Assembly: GCA_024711025.1 (NCBI GenBank)
Contig: JANJTP010000021.1
Span: 1-64,000 of the forward strand
Length of the DNA stretch: 64,000 bases
Direction: 5' to 3'
Source: Solirubrobacteraceae bacterium
GTDB lineage: Bacteria; Actinomycetota; Thermoleophilia; Solirubrobacterales; Solirubrobacteraceae
A model generated the notes under the pieces. That model had not been told where the DNA came from. It searched no databases and was given only the letters and a program-made list of their open reading frames with translations. Below, one piece after another: positions 17,790 through 57,490 of the stretch. Position numbers and translations under genes: made by a program. Every line of letters begins with the position of its first letter. The stretch's first letter is position 1.

Positions 17790-17936
17790 ACCCTCCCCGC
17801 GCACCGCGCCCTCCCCGCGACCGCGCCCTCCCCGCGACCGCGCACCGCGCCCTCCCCGCGACCGCGCACCGCGCCCTCCCCGCGACCGCGCCCTCCCCGC
17901 GACCGCGCACCGCGCCCTCCCCGCGACCGCGCACCC
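17790..17936. repeat. GC-rich 17/24-bp tandem array
   Basis: Seven copies of CCCTCCCCGCGACCGCG, some extended by GCACCGCG to 24 bases, fill the convergent intergenic between the lrp and mobA genes. The lengths alternate as about 18, 17, 24, 24, 17, 24, 19. No coding capacity is likely. Confidence 0.85.
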
Positions 17937-19231: not shown

Positions 19232-19267
19232 ACCGCGCACGCTCTGCGACAGAACCGCGCCACCTCC

Positions 19268-19323
19268 GTACAGTCGCCGTCGCGACGGGAACGTCGTACA
19301 GTCGTCGTCGCGACGGGAACGTG
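19268..19323. repeat. 28-bp direct repeat, two copies
   Basis: Two adjacent units each begin GTACAGTCG and contain CGTCGCGACGGGAACGT. They differ at two bases. Confidence 0.8.
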
Positions 19324-19363
19324 GCTGCAGAAACACAACCCATACCTGAGCTACTGCAGCCAC
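19321..19363 (-). repeat. dispersed hairpin element, copy A
   Basis: Arms GTGGCTGCAG/CTGCAGCCAC (10 bp, perfect) flank a 23-base loop. On the minus strand the 43 bases match the element at 57365-57407 at 35 positions, with AGCTCAGGTAT in the loop and TTTCTGCAG shared. The second stem pair is T-A here and C-G there, a compensatory change. Confidence 0.8.
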
Positions 19364-19534
19364 AACCTCGCGGGCGTGCCGCTCTGACGCCTCCGCGGCG
19401 ACGACGAACGCGCCGAGCGCTGGGAGGCAGCCACAACCTCGCGGGCGTGCCGCTCTGACGCCTCCGCGGCGACGACGAACGCGCCGAGCGCTGGGAGGCA
19501 GCCACAACCTCGCGGGCGTGCCGCTCTGACGCCC
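19356..19534. repeat. 71-bp tandem repeat, 2.5 copies
   Basis: Units start at 19356, 19427 and 19498 (GCAGCCACAACCTCGCGGGC...). Copies are practically identical, and the third stops after about 36 bases. The array starts inside the right arm of the hairpin element and runs up to the mocA stop codon. Confidence 0.9.
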
Positions 19535-48417: not shown

Positions 48418-48492
48418 GCAACGGCCCGGCGGGGACCGACCAGGGCGTCGCGTCGCGTCGCGTCGTCTCGTACCGGCGGTGCGTCCTTTCGC

Positions 48493-48591
48493 GGGGGCGA
48501 CGCTTCGCGCGGCGACGCTTCGCGGGGGCGACGTTTCGCGGGGGCGACGTTTCGCGCGGCGACGTTTCGCGCGGCGACGCTTCGCGGGGGC
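48493..48591. repeat. 15-16-bp tandem array
   Basis: Six copies of GGCGACG(C/T)TTCGCG with GGG or GC joins lie between the ThDP gene and the pckG terminator. Units repeat every 15 or 16 bases. Not coding in any supported frame. Confidence 0.85.
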
Positions 48592-48600
48592 GTCCGGCAC

Positions 48601-50697: not shown

Positions 50698-51546
50698 TTG
50701 CGCGTTCGGCTTCTGTCCCTCGCCCGCCAACAGCCGATCGCGCTGCTGGCGCTGTTCGTCGCGCTGGGCGGCAGCTCGTATGCCGCTGTCTCCGCGCGCG
50801 ATGCCCGTCCGTCCGGTGAGGTGATCCAGGCGTGCGTAGGCAAGAACACCGGCCGTCTGCGTGTCGTCGACAGCCCGATCCGCTGCGGCAGCCTGGAGGC
50901 GCCGCTGGCGTTCAACCGCGAGGGGCGCCGCGGCTCGCAGGGCAAGATCGGCCCGCGCGGCAAGCGCGGCTTGCAGGGCGACGCCGGGCCCGCCGGCACC
51001 CCTGGTGAGGCCGGGCTCGCCGGCACCCCTGGTCCACAGGGGTCGGCCGGCCCCCAGGGTCCCACCGGCCTCCAGGGTCCCGCCGGCCCGCAGGGCGACC
51101 GGGGAGACACCGGCGCTACCGGTCCGCAGGGCGACCAGGGAGACACCGGCGCCCAGGGCCCGGCCGGCACCAACGGCCTGTCGATCTCGTGGGAGCTCTG
51201 GTCCACGGCGGCCTGGACCGAGACGCCGGCGAGGACCTGGACGCAGATCGGCCAGCAGTCGATCCAGGTCCCCAAGGCCGGCTACCTGGCGATCGCGGTG
51301 ACCTTCGACGTAAGGAACCCCGGCAACAGCCTGGGCGAGGTCAACTGTGACGTGCAGGTCGACGGCGGCGGCCCCTCCGGCGAGTTCACCACCGCAGACC
51401 TGCTCGGCTATCAGCGCTCGCAGCTCGTCTGGATGAAACGTAGGTACCTCCAGGCCGGCGCACACACACTGTCGCTGCACTGCTGGACCGCCCTCGACAT
51501 GCAGGCCGTCACCGCCTCGGGGATCGCGGTGCTCACCACCAGCTGA
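50698..51546 (+). CDS. secreted collagen-like protein
   Basis: 282 residues. The N-terminal export/anchor segment (about 10-29) ends in GGSSYAA, the same block as in the secreted protein at 10.2-10.9 kb. A short beta region follows with cysteines (EVIQACVGKNTGRLR). Then come about 28 uninterrupted Gly-X-Y triplets (roughly residues 80-163), and a C-terminal beta domain of about 115 residues with two cysteines that may trimerise. Start TTG 50698 has AGGAAAGG seven bases upstream. A TAGGGT box at 50659-50664 gives a 27-base leader. Such proteins are surface or extracellular. The ligand is unknown. Confidence 0.8.
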   Translation: MRVRLLSLARQQPIALLALFVALGGSSYAAVSARDARPSGEVIQACVGKNTGRLRVVDSPIRCGSLEAPLAFNREGRRGSQGKIGPRGKRGLQGDAGPAGTPGEAGLAGTPGPQGSAGPQGPTGLQGPAGPQGDRGDTGATGPQGDQGDTGAQGPAGTNGLSISWELWSTAAWTETPARTWTQIGQQSIQVPKAGYLAIAVTFDVRNPGNSLGEVNCDVQVDGGGPSGEFTTADLLGYQRSQLVWMKRRYLQAGAHTLSLHCWTALDMQAVTASGIAVLTTS

Positions 51547-57274: not shown

Positions 57275-57362
57275 GCGGCCCCGCGGCGCACCGGGCGCAG
57301 CGCCGCCGCCTCGGGAGGGCCGGGCGCCACGCGGGACGGGCGGACACGGGCGCTCAACCCGA

Positions 57363-57409
57363 ACGCGGCTGCAGAAGCTCAGGTATAGACCGCGTTTCTG
57401 CAGCCGCGT
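57363..57409 (+). repeat. dispersed hairpin element, copy B
   Basis: ACGCGGCTGCAGAA (57363-57376) pairs perfectly over 14 bp with 57396-57409. The 19-base loop contains GCTCAGGTATAGACC. Related to the element at 19321-19363 (same loop core, same stem core). Confidence 0.85.
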
Positions 57410-57448
57410 CCGCCGCCTGCTCCTGCTGCTGGTCGCCGCGCTCGTCGT

Positions 57449-57487
57449 GCTCAGGCATAGACCGCGTTTCTGCAGCCGCGTCCGCCG
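57449..57487 (+). repeat. dispersed hairpin element, partial copy C
   Basis: 39 bases identical except one to 57377-57415: loop plus right arm and CCGCCG tail, but the left arm is missing. It lies 72 bases downstream of copy B. Confidence 0.85.
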
Positions 57488-57490
57488 GGA

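What the first reader, a model, noticed from the sequence alone, without database searches (positions are those of the whole stretch)
19321..19363. Dispersed hairpin element with compensatory stem change
The 43 bases at 19321-19363 (minus) and 57365-57407 (plus) agree at 35 positions. The stem pair at position 2/42 is T-A in one and C-G in the other, and the loop core AGCTCAGGTAT is unchanged. Both lie between convergent genes, and a third partial copy (57449-57487) lies next to copy B. Selection on the folded form, or a REP/MITE-like mobile repeat, would explain this.
Basis: seen in the sequence. Interest (0 to 1): 0.78.

Follow-up and report, generated by a model that had tools for sequence, protein, structure and literature searches.

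The report
Dispersed palindromic DNA element family
The two hairpins belong to about 46 copies of a short DNA palindrome scattered between the genes of this bacterium; related palindromes with different but matching arms occur in distant relatives, where some sit in frame inside conserved genes, so it looks like a small selfish repeat whose means of spreading is unknown.

Summary
The 43-bp element has 46 full copies plus one partial copy in this 3.1-Mb genome. All are intergenic, in both orientations and all gene contexts. The pair 2/42 cited as compensatory does not covary beyond shuffling among 27 copies, so that argument fails. The folded form is conserved on a wider scale. A covariance model finds similar 43-45-bp palindromes, with different but complementary arms, in 17 of 231 other genomes of the order, but in none of 16 same-genus genomes. 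Covariation there is strong, also at four inner pairs the model did not contain. At window copy B, a same-genus genome with both flanking genes has an 8-bp spacer where the window has 216 bp with hairpins. In one relative genus, copies lie in frame inside intact ORFs (MurC, IspE, glycine oxidase); MurC orthologues lack the insert or carry a decayed copy. No Y1/RAYT transposase was detected in 13 carrier genomes, and no GTAG tag, target duplication or Rfam match was seen. Best reading: a REP/RPE-like non-autonomous palindromic element family, a new variant of a known kind, with unidentified mobilisation. A terminator-only role and plain sRNA genes are disfavoured.

The parts
19321..19363 (-). 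Copy A of the 43-bp palindromic element (GTGGCTGCAG ... CTGCAGCCAC)
57365..57407 (+). Copy B of the 43-bp palindromic element (GCGGCTGCAG ... CTGCAGCCGC)
57449..57487 (+). Copy C, partial: loop, 3' arm and 8 bp of flank of copy B repeated 72 bp downstream, 5' arm missing
19356..19533 (.). 71-bp tandem array (2.5 units, 100% matches) that begins inside one arm of copy A
19267..19322 (.). 28-bp tandem duplication abutting the other end of copy A
57275..57490 (.). 216-bp convergent spacer holding copies B and C; 8 bp in the orthologous place of same-genus genome G015

Best explanation
Copies A, B and C belong to a family of short, self-complementary, non-autonomous dispersed DNA elements of the REP/RPE type. 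The element is a 43-45-bp palindrome with a roughly 16-20-bp stem around a short centre. It has inserted many times into intergenic DNA of this genome and, in another genus of the order, also into open reading frames, where insertions that add a multiple of three bases persist as short extra loops in proteins. After insertion it tends to be duplicated locally (direct dimers, 71-72-bp period, tandem arrays) and then decays. The single-stranded hairpin is most likely the form recognised by whatever moves it. Shown here: copy number, intergenic placement, patchy distribution, one empty orthologous spacer, in-frame intragenic copies, and conserved complementarity of the arms between species. Inferred: that it moves or once moved, that the hairpin is the substrate, and that an enzyme acting in trans is responsible; no enzyme was found.
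For: 46 full copies plus a partial one in the own genome, all intergenic and in both orientations. Patchy distribution: 18 of 232 genomes of the order including the own one, none of 16 same-genus genomes. Empty orthologous spacer in G015: 8 bp against 216 bp. Seven ORFs of relatives read through a copy in frame; at the MurC site orthologues lack it or hold a decayed copy; IspE and glycine oxidase show matching gaps of about 14 residues against solved homologues. Arms covary between species, also at pairs outside the search model.
Against: No mobilising enzyme was found; Y1_Tnp is absent from 13 carriers and other families were not searched. No target-site duplication was recognised. No single-copy, junction-exact presence/absence between strains was available. 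The eight relative sequences that seeded model R2 were picked by eye as palindromic, and the model scores pairing. Shared ancestry of the own-genome element with those of family f3 is likely, not proven. Stem arms within the own genome covary little.
Confidence: 0.68

Rival explanations
1. The palindromes act mainly as bidirectional transcription terminators or 3'-end mRNA stabilisers and are kept by selection for that role.
For: Strong hairpins (-23.7 and -29.7 kcal/mol). In relatives 28 of 68 placed copies lie in convergent spacers, many within 20 bp of both stop codons, and only 6 in divergent ones. Both window copies are convergent.
Against: In the own genome 12 copies are in divergent spacers against 14 convergent. 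No run of T follows the stem. In relatives several copies lie inside ORFs. A terminator does not need the nearly invariant half-sites and loop.
Confidence: 0.12
2. Arm symmetry is maintained by mutation, not selection: template switching within quasi-palindromes copies one arm onto the other, so covariation says nothing about function or mobility.
For: Such arm-correcting mutation is described (PMC3820800, abstract). Within single genera arms change together in many positions.
Against: It does not create dispersed copies, empty sites or in-frame inserts. In the own genome inner arm positions stay unpaired in many copies.
Confidence: 0.12
3. The element is a binding site of a chromosome-organising or regulatory protein, dispersed and kept by selection.
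For: Invariant half-sites at fixed spacing; exclusively intergenic in the window's genome.
Against: Absent from 16 same-genus genomes, unlike a core chromosome function. Half-sites differ between genera while staying complementary. Copies occur inside ORFs in relatives.
Confidence: 0.07
4. A family of small regulatory RNA genes.
For: Conserved loop core in the own genome; stable fold.
Against: No Rfam match in the window or in relatives. No common promoter context was seen; copies occur in all spacer types and inside ORFs. The loop is not conserved between genera.
Confidence: 0.04

Closest known systems
GTAG REPs with RAYT (IS200/IS605-like Y1) transposases
   Same: Short palindromes, many copies per genome, mostly intergenic, sometimes within ORFs, dimers, lineage-specific sequences
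   Different: No GTAG tag, longer symmetric stem, direct rather than mostly inverted dimers, no Y1 transposase found in carriers
CGTC REPs (include RPE-4 and RPE-6 of Rickettsia conorii; PMC3733652)
   Same: Short palindromes without a known dedicated transposase, in spacers near 3' ends and in ORFs
   Different: Those have a terminal CGTC, 8-9-bp stems, 4-5-nt loops and a CCA-like tail. Here the stem is 16-20 bp and untailed; CGTC appears only inside the paired stem of one relative lineage. The five phyla the paper lists (Proteobacteria, Chlorobi, Bacteroidetes, Spirochaetes, Thermotogae) do not include Actinobacteria, my untested guess for this host
Rickettsia palindromic elements (long RPEs, about 150 bp)
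   Same: Palindromes inserted in frame in unrelated protein genes
   Different: About a third of the length; the window's own genome has them only in spacers; other lineage, no sequence link tested
MITEs
   Same: Short non-autonomous repeat with inverted ends
   Different: No target-site duplication and no autonomous partner identified

Membership tests
GTAG REP / RAYT system | Short palindrome in many intergenic copies | tested here: met
   46 full copies, all intergenic
GTAG REP / RAYT system | GTAG tetranucleotide at one end of the hairpin | tested here: not met
   Flanks of all 47 listed copies show none as a rule
GTAG REP / RAYT system | Y1 (PF01797) transposase in the genome | tested here: not met
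   0 of 13 carrier genomes; the control rings in 5 of 14 known genomes. Drafts are incomplete
GTAG REP / RAYT system | Dimers chiefly head-to-head or tail-to-tail | tested here: not met
   The four own-genome dimers are direct repeats
CGTC REP | Terminal CGTC, 8-9-bp stem, 4-5-nt loop, unpaired tail | tested here: not met
   Own element has none of these; definition from PMC3733652
CGTC REP | No dedicated transposase | tested here: inconclusive
   Only PF01797 was searched
Rickettsia palindromic element (as a way of working) | In-frame insertion in ORFs | tested here: met
   Met in relatives; not in the window's own genome
Rickettsia palindromic element (as a family) | Sequence relationship to RPE families | not tested
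   No RPE sequences were fetched; lengths differ
MITE | Target-site duplication | tested here: not met
   Flanks are complementary extensions, not direct repeats
MITE | Autonomous element with the same ends | tested here: inconclusive
   None seen among the copies; transposase families other than Y1 not searched
Intrinsic terminator | Hairpin followed by T run, downstream of genes | tested here: not met
   No T run; 12 copies in divergent spacers
Known Rfam RNA | Match above gathering score | tested here: not met

The most novel reading that the evidence does not exclude
An order-wide lineage of symmetric 43-45-bp palindromes spreads into spacers and, in frame, into essential genes such as murC and ispE, without a Y1 transposase or target duplication. 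The arms keep changing together, so the element would propagate as a structure rather than as a fixed sequence, by a mechanism not yet described.
Probability: 0.3. Interest if true: 0.78.

Novelty: new variant of a known kind. Interest (0 to 1): 0.52.

Why it matters
In-frame palindromic insertions in proteins are best known from Rickettsia and some REP carriers. Another lineage with an untagged element and no detected Y1 transposase would make the question of how such palindromes move testable in other bacteria. It also gives ready comparative sites: the murC insert, its decayed version and its absence within one genus, and the 8-bp spacer in the orthologous place of window copy B.

Tried and rejected
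Compensatory change at 2/42 as evidence for RNA structure within this genome: rejected, no excess over shuffles. RAYT-mobilised REP: no Y1_Tnp in any carrier tested. Terminator as the general role: rejected on context in the own genome. Element confined to this species: first concluded from the strict pattern and R1 searches, then overturned by the relaxed pattern and R2. Larger transposon with ends CTAGACGAGTNGTTCCACGG around the C3 copy: those ends occur next to few copies, so it is not the carrier of the family. CRISPR-like arrays (43-bp repeat, 28-bp spacer in the dimers): rejected by reading, since copies are mostly solitary and the 71-bp unit next to copy A holds only part of an arm. attC-like site: the flank GTTC does not fit GTTRRRY (from memory, by reading). 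tRNA-like reading of TAGCTCAG: not pursued. Phage carriage: no hits in IMG/VR. Alignment of MurC by align_proteins failed on coordinates and was done in Python. Structure prediction of the MurC insert was not submitted because such loci are outside the tool's stated inputs.

Full report
OBSERVATION. The stated bases and coordinates are right. Copy A (19321-19363, minus) and copy B (57365-57407, plus) agree at 35 of 43 positions, while unrelated 43-mers of the window reach 23-25. The partial copy at 57449-57487 repeats 57377-57415 with one difference. Both sites lie between convergent genes.

CENSUS. A pattern search of the window's genome, a covariance model R1 built from 27 copies and a weight-matrix scan of fetched regions give 46 full-length copies plus the partial one, on many contigs. 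All are intergenic by a codon-usage gene model of my own, in sequence that is 85% coding: 14 convergent, 12 divergent, 17 co-directional, 4 at contig edges. Flanks suggest that the palindrome often extends further (GAAC...GTTC). Hairpin-bearing spacers are rich in tandem repeats: 24% of bases against 9% in other spacers and 1.5% in genes. Four direct dimers (contigs C5, C6, C23 and the window's B/C) and the array next to A share a 71-72-bp period; the reason is unexplained.

WITHIN-GENOME COVARIATION. The stem arms GGCTGCAG/CTGCAGCC are nearly invariant. Pair 2/42 varies independently on both sides (UA14, CG4, UG3, CA6), and no measure exceeds shuffles. Adding all 43 distinct copies gives a modest excess (22 double changes against 13.7+-2.8). 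The argument in the finding is therefore weak for this genome.

RELATIVES. Strict searches found nothing convincing in 100 relatives, nothing in GTDB contigs beyond two stray matches in Legionella and a Prevotellaceae MAG, and nothing in viral contigs. A relaxed pattern over the 232 genomes held for the order returned mostly chance hits, but among them palindromes of the same size in other families. Model R2 (18 own copies, 8 relatives) then found 18 of 232 genomes with matches at E<=0.01, the own one included. Match rows, which can list one site on both strands, number 20 in G125, 18 in G128, 15 in G124, 13 in G130 and 11 in G132; no same-genus genome matched. The arms differ by lineage yet stay complementary: GTGGCTGCA here; CCGTCTGCA, GCGTTCGCA, GAGTCTGCA, GTGGGTGCA, GAGATTGCA, TCCTGTGCA elsewhere. 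G7, C8, G36 and C37 are invariant in 58 sequences not used for R2. Because R2 scores pairing, the fair test is at pairs 17-20/24-27, which it did not contain: 68% paired against 49% shuffled, and 55 double changes against 27.6+-3.8. The whole 20-bp stem gives 211 against 75. Shared ancestry of the own and the relatives' elements is likely but not proven. The eight seeds were picked by eye as palindromic.

EMPTY SITE FOR THE WINDOW. In the same-genus genome G015 the two genes flanking copy B are adjacent and convergent (82.5% and 69% identical), with an 8-bp spacer. The window has 216 bp there, holding B and C. This fits insertion in the window's lineage; loss in G015 is not excluded.

COPIES INSIDE GENES. 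In the relatives (six of the seven in genus g45 genomes G124, G125, G126 and one in G128 of the same genus) copies are read through in frame in long ORFs with normal codon statistics on both sides. These are MurC, IspE, a glycine-oxidase-like enzyme, an alkyl-DHAP-synthase-like enzyme, a glycosyltransferase, a GNAT-type protein and a polysaccharide pyruvyl transferase (names by Pfam and by solved homologues). A 43-bp element needs two extra bases to keep frame, and the modal palindrome in relatives is 45 bp. At the MurC site G125 has the palindrome, G122 a decayed version with the outer arms intact, G124 and G130 a different insert, and G126, G091, G129 none; the element accounts for 15 of the 25 extra residues of G125 over G126. 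IspE and the glycine oxidase show gaps of about 14 residues at the insert against solved homologues. For L220 the alignment is not conclusive. ORFs broken by the element would not have been called intragenic, so the all-in-frame result is partly by construction.

WHAT IT IS. The behaviour is that of REP and RPE elements: dispersed palindromes in spacers, near gene ends and sometimes within ORFs (PMC3733652; PMC10969869). It fails the defining tests of the named families: no GTAG tag, no terminal CGTC with short stem and tail, no Y1 transposase in 13 carriers, no target-site duplication. It is therefore filed as a new variant of a known kind. The mobilising step is inferred only. A rival for the covariation, though not for the dispersal, is template-switch correction of quasi-palindromes (PMC3820800).

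LIMITS. Transposase families other than PF01797 were not searched. CM E-values are rough. Gene boundaries are my own predictions.

Noticed in passing
L138-L147 (own-genome contigs C63, C58, C27, C50, C17, C67, C22:96168 and others): A second dispersed repeat of about 107 bp (GACGAGCGGCTGCGGGATGGATGACG...), 24 matches in the own genome, often in head-to-tail units of about 107-110 bp and next to some of the 43-bp palindromes.
   Followed up: partly
own genome C3:21622-21731, C56:3080, C60:69805, C68:51001 (L128-L132): The C3 palindrome copy is flanked by a longer inverted repeat CTAGACGAGTNGTTCCACGG; the same sequence lies upstream of the C56 and C60 copies and once elsewhere.
   Followed up: partly
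L237 2233-2274 (-) and L238 2170-2211 (+): MurC of G124 and G130 carries a different, also palindromic-looking insert (ends GTCCGNCGGGCGTC) at about the site where G125 has the 43-bp palindrome.
   Followed up: partly
window 50698-51546 (+): Gene for a collagen-like protein with GPQGDQGDTGA-type repeats.
   Followed up: partly
spacers of L108, L111, L117, L119, L122, L126 and others: Hairpin-bearing spacers often hold 17-19-bp tandem repeats, one array of about 17 units (L126); cause unknown.
   Followed up: no
window 17797-17935 and 48487-48592: Further short tandem arrays not tied to the hairpin family.
   Followed up: no
L194 1501-1595, L232 970-1052: In relatives, two palindromes stand 52 bp apart (L194) or overlap by 3 bp (L232), as if one had joined the end of another.
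   Followed up: no
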